Below, piece by piece: positions 27,569 to 41,139 of a DNA stretch of 60,288 nt (positions within the stretch are counted from its first letter, which is position 1; every line of letters starts with the position of its first letter). Source of the stretch: a virus. The translations under genes and the position numbers were made by a program. Where the stretch lies: IMG/VR virus record IMGVR_UViG_3300035698_029380, positions 1-60,288 of that record; one strand, 5' to 3'. A model generated the notes under the pieces. It searched no databases. It had not been told where the DNA came from and worked only from the letters and a program-made list of their open reading frames with translations.

Positions 27569-27597
27569 TTGACAAAAAATAGAAAATATTTTATTAT
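27569..27597 (+). promoter_or_regulatory. Early sigma70-type promoter
   Basis: TTGACA (27569-27574), 17-nt spacer, TATTAT (27592-27597); ribosome binding site AAAGGAGAG follows. Drives the 253-residue gene and probably the RNA locus beyond it. Confidence 0.8.
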
Positions 27598-27626: not shown

Positions 27627-28388
27627 ATGGAAAAAAATCAACTACATCAACTATTAGCGGTTGAAAATGATAGGAGAACAAAAGCTGGTCGAATAGCTGT
27701 TGAAGCTATTAATACTTTTCAAAAAAAGTCAGAGCATTTTGATGGTATCGTAAAGGTGTATACCCCTTACGATGAAGAAAAAGGAGCAAAAATCCCTGCA
27801 GAAATCAAGGAAGTTGTTACGACCGTGTCAGATAAAATAAATTATACTCAAAAAGCAATGATAGTTGGAATAGATGCTCAGCTAAGCAAAGAAGAAACTA
27901 ATGGTAGCGGAACAGCTAAAGCAGAACTAAAAGTCGGTGAAATTTCTTTTGGAGAGCTTTCAGCTACTTCACTTTTGGCATTAGAAACTCAGCTTATCAA
28001 AGTTAGAGATGTGTATAAATCTATTCCAACCTTAGACCCAACTAAATCTTGGGAACCATCTAAAATAGATGGAAAAAATATTTATACATCTAAATCGGAT
28101 GTTAAATATAGAACTGAAAAATTACATACGCCTTTGGTATTATCCGAAGCAACAAAAGAACACCCTGCGCAAGTTCAAATAATCTCTACTGATAAGCAAG
28201 TTGGTAAATACGAAACAACTTATAAATCAGGAAAGATTACACCAACTCAAAAATCAGAACTTCTTGGAAAAGTTGATACTTTAATAGATAAAGTAAAAAG
28301 AGCAAGAGCTAAAGCTAATAGAGTAGAGGTGGTAAAAGCCAAGGTTGGCAAAAAGATTTTTGATTATATAAATGGAGAAATATTATAA
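27627..28388 (+). CDS. Conserved phage protein (DUF7873-like, tentative)
   Basis: 253 residues. It opens MEKNQLHQLLAVENDRRTKA and later has SKSDVKYRTEK followed by PLVLSEATKEHPAQVQIIS (residues ~170-188) and KSELLGKVDTLIDKVKRARAKAN. From memory this layout matches a family widespread in actinobacteria and their phages, now a numbered DUF; a profile search is needed. No catalytic residues are obvious. It has a strong early promoter and is directly followed by the tRNA-like RNA locus, so a link between protein and RNA is possible. Function unknown. Confidence 0.6.
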   Translation: MEKNQLHQLLAVENDRRTKAGRIAVEAINTFQKKSEHFDGIVKVYTPYDEEKGAKIPAEIKEVVTTVSDKINYTQKAMIVGIDAQLSKEETNGSGTAKAELKVGEISFGELSATSLLALETQLIKVRDVYKSIPTLDPTKSWEPSKIDGKNIYTSKSDVKYRTEKLHTPLVLSEATKEHPAQVQIISTDKQVGKYETTYKSGKITPTQKSELLGKVDTLIDKVKRARAKANRVEVVKAKVGKKIFDYINGEIL

Positions 28389-28396
28389 AAAATAGA

Positions 28397-28768
28397 GCTA
28401 GTCTAAGTTTTAGACTTAGCATAAAGTAGGCGACCAAAGATATCGCCTACAATAAGCTTCAGCGTTTCGACTCTGTAGCTTTAAAAGAAGTCTTTTGAAC
28501 TGAAAAGATTGAGTACATAACTTCTAATGCTTTCGGGCAAAACAAGCTTGTGCGCCGGTTCGAGCCCGGCGGGGGCCTCTGAAACTTTTTGAAAAAGAGG
28601 TTTGAGAGGCCCCCTAGCTCAGTGGCAGAGCAAAGTGATTAGTATAAAATAGAAGGGTATGGAAAAATATTCAAGGGGAAAGAGCAATTATATCAATGAA
28701 TGCTGAAAACCGGCGTTTACTAATAATTTGGGGGAGGTGCATAGTGGTAGGCATTCTCCCCTTTTTTT
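28397..28768 (+). ncRNA. Structured RNA with circularly permuted tRNA-like domain
   Basis: No protein gene fits here. In order there is a T arm (GCCGG-TTCGAGC-CCGGC, 28554-28570), a 3' acceptor strand GGGGGCC (28571-28577, extended to GGGGGCCTC), a 26-nt hairpin loop, a 5' acceptor strand GAGGCCCCC (28606-28614), TA, and a D arm (GCTC-AGTGGCA-GAGC, 28617-28631). No anticodon arm is present; instead AAAGtgATTAG (28632-28642) pairs with CTAATgCTTT (28524-28533), and TTCAGCGTTT (28458-28467) pairs with GAATGCTGAA (28698-28707). Upstream hairpins include GTAGGCGA/TCGCCTAC. Bacterial Y RNAs (YrlA) have this permuted layout; a permuted tmRNA is the alternative. Confidence 0.7.
28730..28768 (+). terminator. 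Rho-independent terminator of the RNA locus
   Basis: GGGGAG pairs with CTCCCC around a tRNA D-arm-like loop (GTGCATAGTGGTAGGCA), followed by seven T. Defines the 3' end of the structured RNA. Confidence 0.8.
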
Positions 28769-28769
28769 A

Positions 28770-28798
28770 TTGACAAAAAATAAAAATAATGAGATAAT
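28770..28798 (+). promoter_or_regulatory. Early promoter placing +1 near an ATG
   Basis: TTGACA (28770-28775), 17-nt spacer, GATAAT (28793-28798). The ATG at 28804 begins 6 nt after the -10 box, so the mRNA should be leaderless or nearly so. Confidence 0.65.
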
Positions 28799-29011: not shown

Positions 29012-30277
29012 ATGTTCGTTCAATTGCATACTCACACGCATATAGGTTCTCGTCTCGATGCTGTAGCTTCGCCAGAAGATTATGTAAAAAAAGCCGTTGA
29101 ATATAATCATCCAGCTCTTGCGATTACTGATCATGGCAGATTGAATGGAATTTATGAACATCAAAAACAGTGTCTAAAATATGGAATAAAGCCTATTCTT
29201 GGTGTTGAAATGTATTTAGTTGATGAGCTTGAAGAAATAGAAAAAAAAGGCAAAAAAGAAAAGCGAATAAGAACAAAAAATTATCATATAGTTTTATTAG
29301 CCAGCAACAAAATTGGCTATGAAAATTTACTTTATTTAAACTATCTTTCAATGAAAGATACTTCTCATTTTTATTATAATCCAAGAATTTTACAAAAAGA
29401 ACTATTTGAGCATTCAGAAGGGTTAGTTGTTGGAACAGCTTGTTTAGCAAATCCATTTATTTCACTATATAGAAAAGAAAAAATTCATGAAAGCGTCGAA
29501 TTATATAAAAAATATTTAGATGTTTTTGGAAAAAACTTTTATACAGAAATACAATTAAATGAATTAACAAGGCCAATAGATAATTTACAAAAAGGGCAAC
29601 AAAGTTCTAATGACTTTATGATAAAAATGGCCAATAAATTTGGGGTTCCAGTAGTTCTTACTGGTGATGTTCATTATCTTGAAAAGGGGCAAGATAAACT
29701 ACAAACATTATCGATTGCTATAAGAGATAAATCTACAATCGATAATTTATCATTTCAACTTGAAAGTAAAGAACTATATTATCACGATATAAAAGATTAT
29801 ATTGAGTTCAATGATAGATGGAATTACGGATATAAAAAAGAAGATATAATTTCATGGTGCCATAATTCTATTGATGTAGCAAATAAATGTAGTTATACGA
29901 TTCCCTCAAGAGCGAAACTTCATATTCCAAAAACATCTAGAAATGATGATAGCAAACTTATTATAAAAGCAAAAGAAGGTCTAGAAAAAAAATTCGATAA
30001 AGTTCCAGCCGAATATAAAAAAAGATTAGAACATGAATTAGAAGTAATTATTAGAAAAGGTTTTAGTAGTTATTGTCTTATTTTAGAAGATATTTATAGT
30101 TTTGTAGAAGAAAAGCAAATTTATAAAGGCCCAGCTAGAGGGAGTGGAGCAGGAAGCCTTGTTTTATATTCATTGGGAATAACTACAATAGATCCTATAA
30201 AATATGGCTTATTGTTTGAAAGATTTTTATCTCAAGCACGCTCACCAGATTTAGTAGTAGATTATTTTGAAGAATGA
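29012..30277 (+). CDS. DNA polymerase III alpha, fragment 1: PHP and palm start
   Basis: 421 residues from MFVQLHTHTH. The PHP domain keeps its metal ligands: LHTHTHIGS (residues ~4-12), ITDHGRLNG (~41-49), LGVEMYL and TGDVHYLEKG, so PHP proofreading activity is plausible. It continues into the palm (FSSYCLILEDIYSF, KGPARGSGAGSLVLYSLGIT, LLFERFLSQARSPD) and stops exactly where the first catalytic Asp pair normally lies; the last residues PDLVVDY resemble that motif but lack the DxD. The chain resumes in the gene at 30461. Confidence 0.88.
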   Translation: MFVQLHTHTHIGSRLDAVASPEDYVKKAVEYNHPALAITDHGRLNGIYEHQKQCLKYGIKPILGVEMYLVDELEEIEKKGKKEKRIRTKNYHIVLLASNKIGYENLLYLNYLSMKDTSHFYYNPRILQKELFEHSEGLVVGTACLANPFISLYRKEKIHESVELYKKYLDVFGKNFYTEIQLNELTRPIDNLQKGQQSSNDFMIKMANKFGVPVVLTGDVHYLEKGQDKLQTLSIAIRDKSTIDNLSFQLESKELYYHDIKDYIEFNDRWNYGYKKEDIISWCHNSIDVANKCSYTIPSRAKLHIPKTSRNDDSKLIIKAKEGLEKKFDKVPAEYKKRLEHELEVIIRKGFSSYCLILEDIYSFVEEKQIYKGPARGSGAGSLVLYSLGITTIDPIKYGLLFERFLSQARSPDLVVDYFEE

Positions 30278-30287
30278 AGTTTAATAA

Positions 30288-30464
30288 ATGATTAGCTATA
30301 AAAGATTTAAAGAAAATAAAAAGGTTGGAATACTTATACAAATATTTAAAAATTCGTCAACATATTGGATAATAGAAATAATGTTAAAACATAATACTTT
30401 TTATAAATGGGTCAATAGAAATAAGTTACGAACACAGTGGGTAAAAAGAAATTTAGGATTATGA
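30288..30464 (+). CDS. Microprotein inside the split polymerase
   Basis: 58 residues: MISYKRFKENKKVGILIQIFKNSS, Trp- and Lys-rich after that. VGILIQIFKN fits the recurrent N-terminal helix. Overlaps the ATG of polymerase fragment 2 as ATGA, so translation is probably coupled. Confidence 0.55.
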   Translation: MISYKRFKENKKVGILIQIFKNSSTYWIIEIMLKHNTFYKWVNRNKLRTQWVKRNLGL

Positions 30465-31321
30465 AAACTTATAGAGAACTAAAAAAGCATTGCGATGAAC
30501 AAATAAAGCAATATCCTCAGTATGAAAAAATATACCGTAAAGAAATAATAATGGCTAAACGTTATTACGATAATGGTAGAAATCTTTATGAAGAATTAAA
30601 TAATAAAAAAATAAAAAATAACTATGTAATACCATTTTTATTAGGAATAACAAATAAAGTTAAAGATGAGGATTTGAAAACTTGTTTTGTTTCTAAGGGT
30701 AGTAGTGGCGGAATTGATGTCGATACAGATTTTTCAAGTGCAGGAAAGGAAATGATACAAGAATATCTTATACTAAAATATGGTGAAGATAGAGTTATTC
30801 ATGTTGGAACTTTTACTAAGTTAGGCCCATCTTCCGCTGCGAAAGATTTGCTTAGAATTTATAAAGTTGATTATGGGCGATCAAATGAATTTACAAAAGT
30901 ATTAGAAAAAAATCTAACTTGGGAACAAAATGTAGAAAATTTAAAAGAAAATTTTCAAGAGCAATATAAATTTTATGAGCAAAATAAAAGTGTTTTAGAA
31001 ATGGTTCCTTATTTTATAAATAAAACAAGACAAGCCGGAAAACATGCTGGTGGAATTGTCATATCTGATGAGCCGATTTATAAATTAATACCAGTAGATA
31101 GAGTTAGTGGAGAAATGTGTACGGCATTTCCTGAAAGTGGACAAGAGCAAGTTTTAGATGAGTTTGGTATTGTAAAGTTTGATATTTTGGGAATTTCTAT
31201 AATGGATGTTATTAGAGAAACCGTAAATATGATTGAGGAAAAATTATTTTTAATAGAAGAAGATAATGTATTTAAGGTCGTGCCAGAATCTTACATTAAT
31301 AAAGAAATAGAGAAATTATGA
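30461..31321 (+). CDS. DNA polymerase III alpha, fragment 2: catalytic palm
   Basis: 286 residues from the ATG at 30461, chosen for the ATGA overlap; a GTG at 30437 is the alternative. Residues ~1-80 have no counterpart that I recognise in usual DnaE. Then IDVDTDFSSAGKEMIQEYLI with the catalytic DxD at ~86-90, YGEDRVIHVGTF, KTRQAGKHAGGIVIS (~188-202) and GIVKFDILGI with the third catalytic Asp at ~241. All three metal-binding aspartates therefore sit in this piece. It ends before the fingers domain. Confidence 0.85.
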   Translation: MKTYRELKKHCDEQIKQYPQYEKIYRKEIIMAKRYYDNGRNLYEELNNKKIKNNYVIPFLLGITNKVKDEDLKTCFVSKGSSGGIDVDTDFSSAGKEMIQEYLILKYGEDRVIHVGTFTKLGPSSAAKDLLRIYKVDYGRSNEFTKVLEKNLTWEQNVENLKENFQEQYKFYEQNKSVLEMVPYFINKTRQAGKHAGGIVISDEPIYKLIPVDRVSGEMCTAFPESGQEQVLDEFGIVKFDILGISIMDVIRETVNMIEEKLFLIEEDNVFKVVPESYINKEIEKL

Positions 31322-31342
31322 GAGTAAAAAAGAGAGGAAAAA

Positions 31343-31552
31343 ATGCTAACGCAAAAACAAATAGATATAATAGTTAAAGAAAAATTTATTGATATGCAGG
31401 CTTCTATTAATGCTATAGAGACTCAAATACTTGAAGCTGGCGATGAAATGAATAAACAACTTATTTCTTTTCATGTTGGAAAGATTTTTAATGATTATAA
31501 AATAATTACTTCTTTTTTAGGAACATTTAAAGAAGAGCTTGACAAGGAATAA
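31343..31552 (+). CDS. Small helical protein inside the split polymerase
   Basis: 69 residues, two or three helices (KQIDIIVKEKFIDMQASINAIETQILEAGDEM), with ribosome binding site AGAGAGG. It ends EELDKE, whose codons carry the -35 box of the sigma gene promoter. No family recognised. Confidence 0.6.
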   Translation: MLTQKQIDIIVKEKFIDMQASINAIETQILEAGDEMNKQLISFHVGKIFNDYKIITSFLGTFKEELDKE

Positions 31553-31567
31553 TATATATTCTATAAT
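31539..31567 (+). promoter_or_regulatory. Early consensus promoter for the sigma gene
   Basis: TTGACA (31539-31544), 17-nt spacer, TATAAT (31562-31567): both boxes perfect. Ribosome binding site AGAGGT and a TTG start follow. Confidence 0.85.
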
Positions 31568-31588
31568 AATATAATAGAGGTATATTAT

Positions 31589-31975
31589 TTGCTGAACGTT
31601 AATAAAGAAGAACTTAAAAATAAGTTTATAGAAGAAGATTGGGATTATGTATTTGACAAAGCTGAAAAAATTTCTGATTTTATAATTTCTAGAAGATTTA
31701 AAATTTATGATTTACATATAAAAGAAGATATAAGACAAGAATGTTTGGTAAATTTTTGGACTAAAATACAGGCTGGGAAATGTGATCCAGAAAGAAATGT
31801 TTTTGCTTTTATATGGCAAAATTCAACTTATCGAATACTTGAAATTCTTAGAAAAGAAAACAATAGAAAAAGAATAGCCAAATTTATGTCTTTTGAAGCT
31901 GAAGATTATATAGTGTTTAAAAAAGGAATAGGAGAAAAATATGTTCCTTCCCATTTACAAGAGCTCTGGGTATAA
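31589..31975 (+). CDS. Region-2-only sigma factor (gp55-like)
   Basis: 128 residues from a TTG with AGAGGT upstream. The central part DLHIKEDIRQECLVNFWTKIQ (residues ~47-67), then DPERNVFAFIWQNSTYRILEILRKENNRKR (~74-103), is sigma70 region 2.1-2.4: core-binding helix and -10 recognition/melting. There is no region 4, so -35 contact must be absent or supplied by a partner. T4 gp55 is likewise a minimal late sigma that reads only a -10 element. Strong consensus promoter in front. The GTAAAGATAAA motif is a natural candidate target (inference). Confidence 0.75.
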   Translation: MLNVNKEELKNKFIEEDWDYVFDKAEKISDFIISRRFKIYDLHIKEDIRQECLVNFWTKIQAGKCDPERNVFAFIWQNSTYRILEILRKENNRKRIAKFMSFEAEDYIVFKKGIGEKYVPSHLQELWV

Positions 31976-32105
31976 AAAGGTTTTAAATTTGATTGAGCTT
32001 TTCTCAAATAAAACTTATGTTTATTTTTCACTTTTTTATAAAAAGAAAAAAAGACCTGCTTTTTTTAAACGAATTAAATGGCCTAGACCTGGACCTAGAA
32101 AATGA
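31941..32105 (+). CDS. Microprotein inside the split polymerase
   Basis: 54 residues: MFLPIYKSSGYKKVLNLIELFSNK, followed by a basic Pro/Arg-rich tail (RIKWPRPGPRK). AGGAG upstream, 35-bp overlap with the sigma gene, ATGA overlap with polymerase fragment 3. VLNLIELFSN fits the recurrent family helix. Confidence 0.55.
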   Translation: MFLPIYKSSGYKKVLNLIELFSNKTYVYFSLFYKKKKRPAFFKRIKWPRPGPRK

Positions 32106-33604
32106 TAAAAGTAATAAAAGAAATAACAAAGCAAGAGTTCAAAGAACATTTATATCACATAGATATAAACGATCCTTTGTTATATAAAGAACTAGAAAAT
32201 TCCAATATGATTGGAATTTTTCAACTTACTGGAAATACAGCTAAAAGATTAGTCAAAGATATACACCCAAACAATTTTGATGAAGTTAATGCGGTAAATG
32301 CCATGGCTCGTCCAGGTCCAATTGAAAATGCTTCTATTTATGAAAAAAGAAAAAATGGCGCTCCTTCTCCATATCCAGAAATAGTAAATGAAATTTTAAA
32401 AGACACTTATCATGTAATAATTTTTCAGGAAGAAATTATGGAAATTTTTCATAAGGTTGGTGGTTTTGCGCTGGAAGAAGCTGATGAAGTTCGTGGATTA
32501 ATGAAAAAGCTCGGGAAAGTGGAAAAAAATCCAGAAGATTTGAAAAAGTGGAAGAAAGTTGTAAAAAAATTTACTAACGGAGCAATGAAAAATAATATAG
32601 ATGAAGCTATGGCTAAAAAAATAGCTGATGATCTTATTTCTTTTTCATCTTATAGTTTTAATTTATCTCATTCTACATCTTATACTTATATAGCTATGAT
32701 GACAATATACTTATCTGTGTATTTTCGCAAGTATTTTTATTCTTCATTTGCTTCTCAAGAAGATGATAAAAAACTTATTGGAGTATTAAATTCAATAAAA
32801 TCCCAAGGGTTTGAAGTGCTTCAACCAGATGTAAATAAATCGAGTATTTATTTTAAGCCAACAACACAAAATCAAATCTTATTCCCTTTATCTAAAATAA
32901 AGAATATTAGCGATCGTTCCGCCGTTATGATAATGGAAAATGCTCCTTATTCAGATTTTTTTGATTTTATAATAAAAACAAGAAGTAGGATAATAACTAG
33001 TGCTGTTATTAAAGCGCTTATTTCTGCTGGAACTTTTGATTGGCTTGACAAGAATAGAAAAAAAATGTTATTTATATTTAATAAATTTTGGGAAAATAAA
33101 AAAAGCATAAAAATAGAAGAAAAATTATTAGCAATTTATAAGGCAATTGTTGAAGAGGCTGATAGAATACCAGGGCTAGAAACTAACACAGGCGATTTGA
33201 TAGAGTATGAAAAAGAATGTTATGGATTTAATTTTTTCACAACCTTGTTTACAAAAAATAAAACAGATGCCTTTGTCGAAATGTCTAAAAGAAAATTAAT
33301 TAATTTAGGATTTTATAATGTATCGGAAGTTAGTAAAAAAACTCCAGTTGTAGTAAGTTCAACTAGATCTTTTAATGATAAAAATGGCAATGAAATGGCT
33401 TTTATAGAAATTCAAGATATGTTTGGGAGCAAAGAAAAAATACCAATTTTTAGTTCTTATTATAAAGTTATTGGAAATGATATTGTTTCTAATAAGATGT
33501 ATCTAATGAATTTATTTAAAAGCGAGGATGGAAAAATAATGTTTGGCCAGAGCGGTTGGATTGATAACGCTTTTAAAATAAAAAGGTTTATTAGAGAAGC
33601 ATGA
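32102..33604 (+). CDS. DNA polymerase III alpha, fragment 3: fingers, HhH, OB
   Basis: 500 residues. It picks up the DnaE chain at DPLLYKELENSNMIGIFQLT (residues ~23-42), then VNAMARPGPIE (~67-77), YHVIIFQEEIMEIF, EEADEVRGLMKK and SFNLSHSTSYTYIAM of the fingers, the HhH region (ISAGTFDWLDK) and an OB-fold part (MAFIEIQDMFGSKEKIPIF). No catalytic aspartate is needed here. With fragments 1 and 2 it gives a complete C-family polymerase of about 1,200 residues, to be assembled non-covalently unless some joining occurs. Confidence 0.88.
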   Translation: MIKVIKEITKQEFKEHLYHIDINDPLLYKELENSNMIGIFQLTGNTAKRLVKDIHPNNFDEVNAVNAMARPGPIENASIYEKRKNGAPSPYPEIVNEILKDTYHVIIFQEEIMEIFHKVGGFALEEADEVRGLMKKLGKVEKNPEDLKKWKKVVKKFTNGAMKNNIDEAMAKKIADDLISFSSYSFNLSHSTSYTYIAMMTIYLSVYFRKYFYSSFASQEDDKKLIGVLNSIKSQGFEVLQPDVNKSSIYFKPTTQNQILFPLSKIKNISDRSAVMIMENAPYSDFFDFIIKTRSRIITSAVIKALISAGTFDWLDKNRKKMLFIFNKFWENKKSIKIEEKLLAIYKAIVEEADRIPGLETNTGDLIEYEKECYGFNFFTTLFTKNKTDAFVEMSKRKLINLGFYNVSEVSKKTPVVVSSTRSFNDKNGNEMAFIEIQDMFGSKEKIPIFSSYYKVIGNDIVSNKMYLMNLFKSEDGKIMFGQSGWIDNAFKIKRFIREA

Positions 33605-40110: not shown

Positions 40111-41139
40111 ATGACAACAATCGGCACAGGTAATACAGGAATGATTTTGGCTTCAGCTTTTACCAAAAAGCCAATATTATTTTCCACCGCTCATCAAGAC
40201 ACAATAAATTTTTCTAGTTTTGATGTTAATACTTTTTCAGAAGACGGAGCGGGAAAACGATTTAGAACAGGAGCTAAAATTTGGGAAAATAATTTTGAAA
40301 GAATAGAAGAAATACTCGATAATGTTAGAAATGAAAAAGTTGTAATATTTTCTTCTTTTGGTGGAGGTTCTGGTAGTTCTTCGCTAAACCCGATATCAAG
40401 AATTTTAATAAACAATAATAACAAAGTTCTTATTGTTGGCATTATGCCATATAAAAAAGAAATCAATCCCCCTTTAGCAAATTCAGTTCAAGCATTAAAT
40501 AGTTTAATGCCACTTATTTCTAAAGTTTCTGTATTTATTTTTGATAATGAAAAACTTAGAAAAGAGCAAGAAAATAATTGGGAAAATATTGATGGATATA
40601 TTATTAAAAAAACCGACTATTTAATAAACTTGCTTAAAAAATATAGTTCAGATGATTACTCTCCGCTAACTATAGATCAATCAGAACTTGATAGCGTTAT
40701 TTTTGGCGGTGGTTTTGTAGATTTGTCCGACACATTTCTTGAGGAAGGTTTGCCTAAATTTGAATATGGCAAACTAGACAAAACAACTAAAAATTGTCTT
40801 ATTTCGATGTATGTTGATTACAATATAAAAGGAAAAAGCAGAATAAATAAATATCAAGATATTTTTACTCCGGTGATGGATAGAATTTCTAGTAGAGTAT
40901 CAAACGCTAGATTTATTCCTGGAATATTAAGAGCTAAAGTTGTTTTTTCTAACTCTGAAAATAAAAAAATAAAGGATAGAGCATATATAACAATAGTTAG
41001 CGGATTAAATATAAATCATTATCTTAAAAAAATTGAAAGAGTTAGAGATTTAGCTATGAAAAAAGCTATGATTTTTGCAGAAAATTATTCTGGTTCTAAA
41101 TTTATAGATAAAAAGGAAAACAAGATTCTTGATATATGA
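40111..41139 (+). CDS. Tubulin/FtsZ-superfamily GTPase (phage TubZ/PhuZ-like)
   Basis: 342 residues. GTP-binding features: GTGNTG (residues 5-10) as T1, and the tubulin signature as GGGSGS (84-89), preceded by hydrophobic VVIFSSF. LANSVQALNSL (122-132) and FIFDNEKL match the nucleotide-contact helix and Asn. The synergy loop reads TIDQSELD (187-194), keeping Asp189 and an acidic residue at 192 for GTP hydrolysis across the interface. Filaments of such proteins position phage DNA or nuclei (PhuZ) or segregate plasmids (TubZ). Which role applies is open. Confidence 0.8.
   Translation: MTTIGTGNTGMILASAFTKKPILFSTAHQDTINFSSFDVNTFSEDGAGKRFRTGAKIWENNFERIEEILDNVRNEKVVIFSSFGGGSGSSSLNPISRILINNNNKVLIVGIMPYKKEINPPLANSVQALNSLMPLISKVSVFIFDNEKLRKEQENNWENIDGYIIKKTDYLINLLKKYSSDDYSPLTIDQSELDSVIFGGGFVDLSDTFLEEGLPKFEYGKLDKTTKNCLISMYVDYNIKGKSRINKYQDIFTPVMDRISSRVSNARFIPGILRAKVVFSNSENKKIKDRAYITIVSGLNINHYLKKIERVRDLAMKKAMIFAENYSGSKFIDKKENKILDI

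What the first reader, a model, noticed from the sequence alone, without database searches (positions are those of the whole stretch)
28397..28768. Circularly permuted tRNA-like RNA in a phage, with a Y-RNA or permuted-tmRNA layout
T arm, 3' acceptor strand, hairpin, 5' acceptor strand and D arm occur in that order, with a 9-bp acceptor (GGGGGCCTC/GAGGCCCCC), a perfect T loop (TTCGAGC) and a D loop with GG. Instead of an anticodon arm there is a long helix (CTAATgCTTT with AAAGtgATTAG) and beyond it a 10-bp helix joining 28458-28467 to 28698-28707, then a terminator. YrlA-type bacterial Y RNAs present a tRNA-like module in this permuted order; permuted tmRNA precursors do too. No Ro60/TROVE gene is visible here, and no convincing tag peptide was found.
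Basis: partly seen in the sequence, partly recalled or inferred. Interest (0 to 1): 0.88.

Follow-up and report, generated by a model that had tools for sequence, protein, structure and literature searches.

The report
Phage RNA with inside-out tRNA module
Just after a gene of unknown function (DUF7873), this phage encodes a roughly 370-letter RNA with a tRNA-shaped part written in the wrong order; the same gene-plus-RNA pair recurs in phages and bacterial chromosomes of many phyla and matches no RNA family I could find, so it looks like an undescribed RNA-protein system.

Summary
The permuted tRNA-like module is real: T arm 28554-28570, 3' acceptor 28571-28577, hairpin loop, 5' acceptor 28608-28614, D arm 28617-28631. 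Shuffled 60-kb controls never give one as good. It is not a tmRNA, and I do not file it as a YrlA/Ro60 Y RNA. The decisive clue is the gene directly upstream, 27627-28388, which is Pfam DUF7873. In 103 phage-derived DUF7873 loci (the window included, a few near-duplicates), 87 have one or two such modules within 700 nt downstream on the same strand (antisense 0/103, shuffles 0-1/103). In 77 loci from bacterial and archaeal genomes, 54 do (antisense 0, upstream 0). The RNA also has a compensated helix P1, UNAR repeats with a 6-nt period, a conserved block (best of 120,526 positions in the window), an anticodon-stem-like helix and a terminator. Many relatives carry two modules at a fixed spacing; 54 of 125 modules encode NCCA after the acceptor. 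Rfam has no family for it, I found no paper on it, and the protein's confident predicted fold matches nothing solved. Best reading: an undescribed two-part RNP, DUF7873 plus an RNA with permuted tRNA modules, working somewhat like Ro60-Y RNA. Its function is unproven; tRNA mimicry or scaffolding is inferred.

The parts
27569..27597 (+). Promoter-like site TTGACA-17-TATTAT upstream of the gene-RNA unit
   Evidence: 11 of 12 consensus matches; a consensus match only
27627..28388 (+). DUF7873 protein gene (253 aa), proposed partner of the RNA
   Evidence: PF25283 E 3.3e-71; RNA modules lie downstream of this gene in most homologous loci; AlphaFold mean pLDDT 93.8; no fold match at E <= 1e-3
28392..28397 (+). 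P1 helix, 5' strand (ATAGAG), pairs with 28471-28476
   Evidence: in relatives the helix keeps pairing through compensatory changes, e.g. TTGGGT/ACCCAA, AGGACT/AGTCCT, ATGGAAC/GTTCCAT, CAGAGC/GCTCTG
28399..28423 (+). Repeats TNAR with a 6-nt period (TCTAAG TTTTAG ACTTAG ...), possible protein-binding array
   Evidence: runs of 3 or more in 45 of 87 loci against about 0.9 of 87 shuffled; window run of 4
28426..28450 (+). Local hairpin GTAGGCGA/TCGCCTAC
28458..28483 (+). Conserved block TTCAGCGTTTCGACTCTGTAGCTTTA, including the 3' strand of P1 (28471-28476)
   Evidence: a weight matrix built without the window scores this site 26.6, next best 14.8, rank 1 of 120,526 positions
28545..28549 (+). 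Anticodon-stem-like helix, 3' strand (AGCTT), pairs with 28633-28637 (4 of 5)
   Evidence: not used by the module detector
28550..28553 (+). 4-nt variable-loop equivalent GTGC
28554..28570 (+). T arm, 5 bp with loop TTCGAGC
28571..28577 (+). 3' acceptor strand GGGGGCC; TCTG follows, a tetranucleotide recurrent in the family (9 of 64 modules of this type)
28578..28607 (+). Loop joining the acceptor strands, itself a hairpin that lengthens the acceptor stem
28608..28614 (+). 5' acceptor strand GGCCCCC, followed by TA
28617..28631 (+). D arm GCTC-AGTGGCA-GAGC
28633..28637 (+). Anticodon-stem-like helix, 5' strand (AAGTG)
28730..28768 (+). Terminator hairpin with T run; apex AGTGGTAG
   Evidence: -16.7 kcal/mol, z -2.8; terminator hairpins of similar build end the RNAs of relatives

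Best explanation
The window holds a phage copy of a widespread two-part locus: a DUF7873 protein gene and, directly downstream on the same strand, a structured RNA of about 370 nt ending in a terminator. The RNA holds one circularly permuted tRNA cloverleaf (two in many relatives) whose anticodon stem opens into the rest of the RNA instead of carrying an anticodon. Shown here by sequence comparison: the conserved linkage, the permuted cloverleaf, helix P1, the 6-nt-period repeats, the conserved block and the encoded CCA in many relatives. Inferred: DUF7873 binds the RNA, most likely through the repeats and the conserved block, to form an RNP. Inferred: the cloverleaf is recognised by tRNA enzymes (RNase P, 3'-end and CCA enzymes, TruB/Dus-type modifiers), which in relatives with an NCCA end may cut the acceptor loop and leave a two- or three-piece RNA. 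In the window the stem is closed by a long hairpin and probably stays uncut. Inferred, weakest: the particle acts as a tRNA mimic, either a scaffold that brings a tRNA-binding enzyme to other RNAs or a decoy for tRNA-attacking or tRNA-sensing factors, as proposed for Ro60-YrlA. My estimates: conserved RNA family 0.95; RNP with DUF7873 about 0.6; acceptor processing in CCA-bearing relatives about 0.45; tRNA-mimic scaffold or decoy about 0.3.
For: Gene: PF25283 E 3e-71. Linkage: 87 of 103 phage-derived DUF7873 loci have the module within 700 nt downstream (antisense 0/103, shuffles 0-1/103, the gene itself 0/103, upstream 3/73, far downstream 3/79). In 77 loci from the genome collection 54 have it (antisense 0, upstream 0); at least 332 stretches there encode DUF7873. 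Two-module loci: 38, of which 26 have a fixed spacing of 134-149 nt, mostly 141-145. Structure not used in detection: anticodon-stem-like helix 3.33 of 5 pairs against 2.07 +/- 0.13 when strands are reassigned, and 2.51 against 1.82 +/- 0.12 for the other module type. P1 is 75% paired against 59 +/- 2.7% (maximum 69% of 1000 reassignments), slid registers 34-45%, at 47% mean identity. Repeats 45/87 against about 0.9/87. Conserved block rank 1 of 120,526. NCCA in 54 of 125 modules. No other gene family recurs beside the locus except an antisense ORF over DUF7873. No Rfam match at the gathering score in 18 loci apart from nearby tRNAs and one separate tmRNA.
Against: No expression or binding data exist. 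Sixteen of 103 phage-derived and 23 of 77 genome-collection loci lack a detected module; several Cytophagales relatives, the closest to the window protein, have other genes or unrelated sequence there, so the protein may sometimes act without the RNA. The encoded CCA is absent in the window, and its long acceptor hairpin argues against processing there. The predicted fold gives no RNA-binding clue. The acceptor pairing counts are partly selected by the detector. A broader P1 search with a simple anchor was only weakly above its control, 3.71 against 3.35 +/- 0.16.
Confidence: 0.6

Rival explanations
1. It is a YrlA-type bacterial Y RNA whose partner is Ro60/TROVE, supplied by the missing part of the phage or by the host.
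For: Best Rfam match in the region is YrlA, 30.4 bits, E 3.1e-6 for the record. The permuted layout is the same. Phages do carry TROVE with YrlA-like RNAs: all 41 YrlA-like records score on the model and 19 have TROVE.
Against: Score far below the gathering score of 69. DUF7873 modules in general score about 20-49 bits on YrlA, so the match reflects the shared tRNA fold. No TROVE in the record. AATGCT near the T arm in only 4 of 119 modules. Only 3 of 42 searched records, the window included, have DUF7873, and one (G019) has both systems at separate places.
Confidence: 0.1
2. It is a permuted, two-piece tmRNA.
For: Same order of acceptor, loop and D side; CCA encoded in many relatives.
Against: No tmRNA match in the record. 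G3:U70 in 2 of 125 modules. A real D stem. Two modules in one RNA. A separate normal tmRNA in Gordonia phage Phendrix and in contigs L161 and L191. No tag frame seen.
Confidence: 0.02
3. It is a permuted tRNA gene that is cut and ligated into a working tRNA.
For: Nearly complete permuted cloverleaf including a short anticodon-stem-like helix; permuted tRNA genes exist elsewhere, discussed with bulge-helix-bulge processing in PMC3978253.
Against: No anticodon loop seen at the junction; two modules at fixed spacing inside a larger conserved RNA with P1, repeats and block; ordinary tRNAs sit beside it in many loci.
Confidence: 0.04
4. It is a cis-acting 3' untranslated region that controls stability or level of the DUF7873 message, for example by the protein binding its own mRNA.
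For: The RNA lies in the same probable transcript, between the upstream promoter-like site and the terminator; no other recurrent gene.
Against: The size, double cloverleaf and long-range conservation are more than a simple regulatory site needs; some relatives keep an ordinary tRNA inside the same unit.
Confidence: 0.2
5. Decayed tandem tRNA genes or chance.
For: Phage tRNA clusters put T arms before D arms; a tRNA lies within 3 kb in 50 of 103 loci.
Against: Acceptor strands pair perfectly and covary; antisense and shuffle controls are near zero; ARAGORN finds no tRNA in the window.
Confidence: 0.01

Closest known systems
YrlA-type bacterial Y RNAs with Ro60/Rsr (Rfam RF02553, Pfam TROVE)
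   Same: Non-coding RNA with a permuted tRNA-like module, encoded beside its protein gene, in bacteria and phages; may act as scaffold or decoy (published ideas: PMC7790460, PMC12282133).
   Different: Partner gene here is DUF7873, unrelated to TROVE by sequence; the RNA is longer, often has two modules, 6-nt-period repeats, helix P1 and its own conserved block; no conserved YrlA-like AATGCT motif.
Permuted two-piece tmRNA (Rfam tmRNA clan)
   Same: Acceptor halves in permuted order joined by a removable loop; CCA often encoded.
   Different: Real D arm, no G3:U70, no tag frame, protein partner gene, two modules in one RNA.
Circularly permuted tRNA genes of algae and archaea (reviewed in PMC3978253)
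   Same: Permuted order of tRNA halves.
   Different: No anticodon and no sign of re-ligation; the module is embedded in a larger conserved RNA.

Membership tests
YrlA / bacterial Y RNA (RF02553) | Score at or above the curated gathering score (69 bits) | tested here: not met
   30.4 bits
YrlA / bacterial Y RNA (RF02553) | Encoded with Ro60/TROVE | tested here: not met
   No PF05731 match and no match to a phage Ro60 profile in the record, which may be incomplete; DUF7873 is adjacent instead
YrlA / bacterial Y RNA (RF02553) | Permuted tRNA-like module | tested here: met
YrlA / bacterial Y RNA (RF02553) | Ro60-binding stem of the model with its AUGCU element | tested here: inconclusive
   AATGCT and a CTTCTA/TAGAAG stem align in the window, but AATGCT occurs in only 4 of 119 family modules
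YrlA / bacterial Y RNA (RF02553) | Binding to Ro60 | not testable with these tools
   Needs biochemistry
tmRNA | Match to tmRNA covariance models, standard or permuted | tested here: not met
tmRNA | G3:U70 alanine identity pair | tested here: not met
   Window pair 3:70 is C-G; 2 of 125 family modules have G:U
tmRNA | Tag reading frame | tested here: not met
   No frame ending in a typical tag seen by eye in 28632-28768
DUF7873-linked RNA (family described here) | Downstream of DUF7873 on the same strand | tested here: met
DUF7873-linked RNA (family described here) | Permuted cloverleaf with short-loop D arm | tested here: met
DUF7873-linked RNA (family described here) | P1, 6-nt-period repeats and conserved block | tested here: met
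   P1 6 of 8 pairs, run of 4, block rank 1
DUF7873-linked RNA (family described here) | Expressed as RNA and bound by DUF7873 | not testable with these tools
   Needs RNA-seq and binding assays

The most novel reading that the evidence does not exclude
DUF7873 and its RNA form a previously unknown class of ribonucleoprotein, unrelated by sequence to Ro60-Y RNA, shared by phages and bacteria of many phyla, in which one or two inside-out tRNAs are built into a protein-bound RNA and, where CCA is encoded, are cut by the cell's own tRNA enzymes into a multi-piece RNA that manipulates tRNA metabolism.
Probability: 0.4. Interest if true: 0.93.

Novelty: categorically new. Interest (0 to 1): 0.86.

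Why it matters
If right, this is a widespread RNA-protein system (at least 332 stretches in a genome collection, plus many phages) that Rfam has not catalogued and for which I found no paper. It would be a second, apparently independent case of a permuted tRNA module tied to a dedicated protein gene, and would make testable why cells and phages build inside-out tRNAs: scaffold, decoy or processing signal. It also gives DUF7873 its first functional lead. Caveat: the paper library held open-licence PMC papers and no preprints, so a published description could have been missed.

Tried and rejected
Rfam at gathering score: nothing in the window. ARAGORN: no tRNA or tmRNA. An exact pattern of the D side, and a back-translated scan with DUF7873 or DnaE alone, found no relatives. 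blastn of the RNA region against phages: none. A YrlA-style pattern scan found 102 stretches, about half tandem tRNAs and half real YrlA-like RNAs; useful as contrast, not as relatives. Ro60 profile: no hit in the window. An early profile mixed in two wrong-strand ORFs, so I used the rebuilt alignment A1 instead. Fold search of DUF7873: no solved relative; one BFVD entry, A0A7M1RW91 of a crAss-like phage, has probability 1.00 but E 0.06, so only a lead. Neighbour clustering: no third partner. A simple automatic P1 search was too loosely anchored. Literature: no paper on DUF7873 or on a permuted tRNA-like RNA of this kind in the held library.

Full report
WHAT IS THERE. The window is an IMG/VR virus record of 60,288 bp, 28% G+C, with T4-type baseplate, DnaE-type polymerase, SbcC and DnaB-like genes. 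At 28554-28631 a T arm, 3' acceptor strand, capped hairpin, 5' acceptor strand and D arm stand in permuted order. My detector finds no other such module on either strand, and 20 shuffled copies of the window never gave one of the same quality. The region 28397-28768 folds at z = -5.4 and ends in a terminator hairpin with a T run.

The permuted layout is right. The 10-bp long-range helix is not supported: its arms fold locally and its 5' arm is part of a conserved sequence block. tmRNA is excluded. The YrlA model gives 30.4 bits, far below its gathering score of 69.

CONTRAST WITH YrlA. A pattern scan found real YrlA-like RNAs in many phage contigs, and 19 of 41 such records carry TROVE/Ro60. 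The window carries no TROVE, even with a profile built from phage Ro60 proteins. Large phage contigs with YrlA-like RNAs but neither TROVE nor DUF7873 also exist.

THE KEY. The gene that ends just before the RNA (27627-28388) is DUF7873 (PF25283, E 3e-71). In GenBank phages of Rhizobium, Arthrobacter, Gordonia, Rhodococcus, Vibrio and Klebsiella the unannotated stretch after DUF7873 holds the same kind of module. In 103 phage-derived loci (IMG/VR and GenBank, a few near-duplicates, the window counted once) 87 have one or two modules within 700 nt; antisense 0, shuffles 0-1, the gene itself 0, upstream 3/73, far downstream 3/79. Relaxing the detector adds a few more.

NOT ONLY PHAGES. At least 332 stretches in the one-genome-per-species collection encode DUF7873. 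Of the 80 best, 77 had enough downstream sequence and 54 have the module; antisense 0, upstream 0. Neighbours of the loci sampled are ordinary chromosomal genes such as EF-Tu, an aminotransferase and transporters. The best identities to the window protein, 48-53%, are in Cytophagales and Saprospiraceae, so the phage's host is probably a member of Bacteroidota (inference).

ANATOMY OF THE FAMILY. Of 125 modules, 54 have NCCA right after the 3' acceptor strand and only 2 have G3:U70; two-module RNAs keep a fixed spacing, mostly 141-145 nt once the first loop is removed. A 4-5 bp anticodon-stem-like helix, not used by the detector, exceeds its control by about 10 and 6 standard deviations in the two module types. 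In an alignment of 21 single-module RNAs at 47% mean identity, helix P1 is 75% paired against 59 +/- 2.7% for reassigned strands, and the acceptor, T and D stems are 99-100% paired; acceptor pairing is partly selected by the detector. A cruder P1 search over more loci was only weakly above control. After the stop codon comes a run of TNAR repeats with a 6-nt period, 45/87 loci with three or more against about 0.9 expected; the window has four. The window's copy of the conserved block is the best of 120,526 positions for a matrix built without the window; that matrix used an alignment made with the window in it, a mild bias, but the margin to the next site is 12 units. Some relatives hold an ordinary tRNA between the core and the terminator.

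THE PROTEIN. AlphaFold gives a confident model (mean pLDDT 93.8) with no significant match in PDB or BFVD. No other gene family recurs at these loci.

MECHANISM. Shown: a conserved gene-RNA pair and a conserved RNA architecture. Inferred: DUF7873 binds the RNA through the periodic repeats and block; tRNA enzymes recognise the cloverleaf; CCA-bearing members may be cut into pieces; the particle mimics tRNA as scaffold or decoy. The last idea is borrowed from proposals for YrlA (PMC7790460, read). In the window the long acceptor hairpin and the lack of CCA suggest the RNA stays in one piece.

COMPARISON AND NOVELTY. It works most like Ro60-Y RNA but does not meet that family's tests. No Rfam family matches the RNA in the window or in 18 relatives' loci, and no paper in the held library describes it. 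I call it categorically new, with the caveat that preprints and most subscription journals were not searched.

Noticed in passing
window 29012-33604: The DnaE-type polymerase lies in three ORFs (29012-30277, 30437-31321, 32102-33604); the second gap holds a 128-aa ORF (31589-31975) with no Pfam match, and no Rfam intron matches the region.
   Followed up: partly
L272, L276, L278, L260 and several phage loci (L137, L202, L206, L208, L212): An ordinary tRNA sits between the DUF7873 RNA core and its terminator, apparently inside the same transcription unit.
   Followed up: partly
L006, L016, L024, L087 (IMG/VR phage contigs): Arrays of several small Y-RNA-like hairpins with a shared GTTACTTC-type motif lie next to TROVE genes in phages.
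   Followed up: partly
records G001, G005, G007, G009, G011, G026 (loci L002, L009, L012, L014, L020, L056): Large phage contigs carry tandem YrlA-like RNAs but no TROVE and no DUF7873; their partner, if any, is unknown.
   Followed up: partly
window 28730-28768: The terminator hairpin has a D-arm-like apex (TGCATAGTGGTAGGCA); other family members have AGGATAG, AAGGCTAG or GGATATG at the apex, possibly a conserved element.
   Followed up: no
window 28770-28798: A strong promoter-like site, TTGACA-17-GATAAT, directly follows the terminator and probably drives the polymerase operon.
   Followed up: no
window 40111-41139: A weak match to the PhuZ tubulin family (phrog_4733, E 3e-5).
   Followed up: no
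Prevotella Lak phages (L134 and relatives): Divergent DUF7873 homologues (about 25% identity) occur in Lak megaphages; no permuted module was detected downstream in L134.
   Followed up: partly
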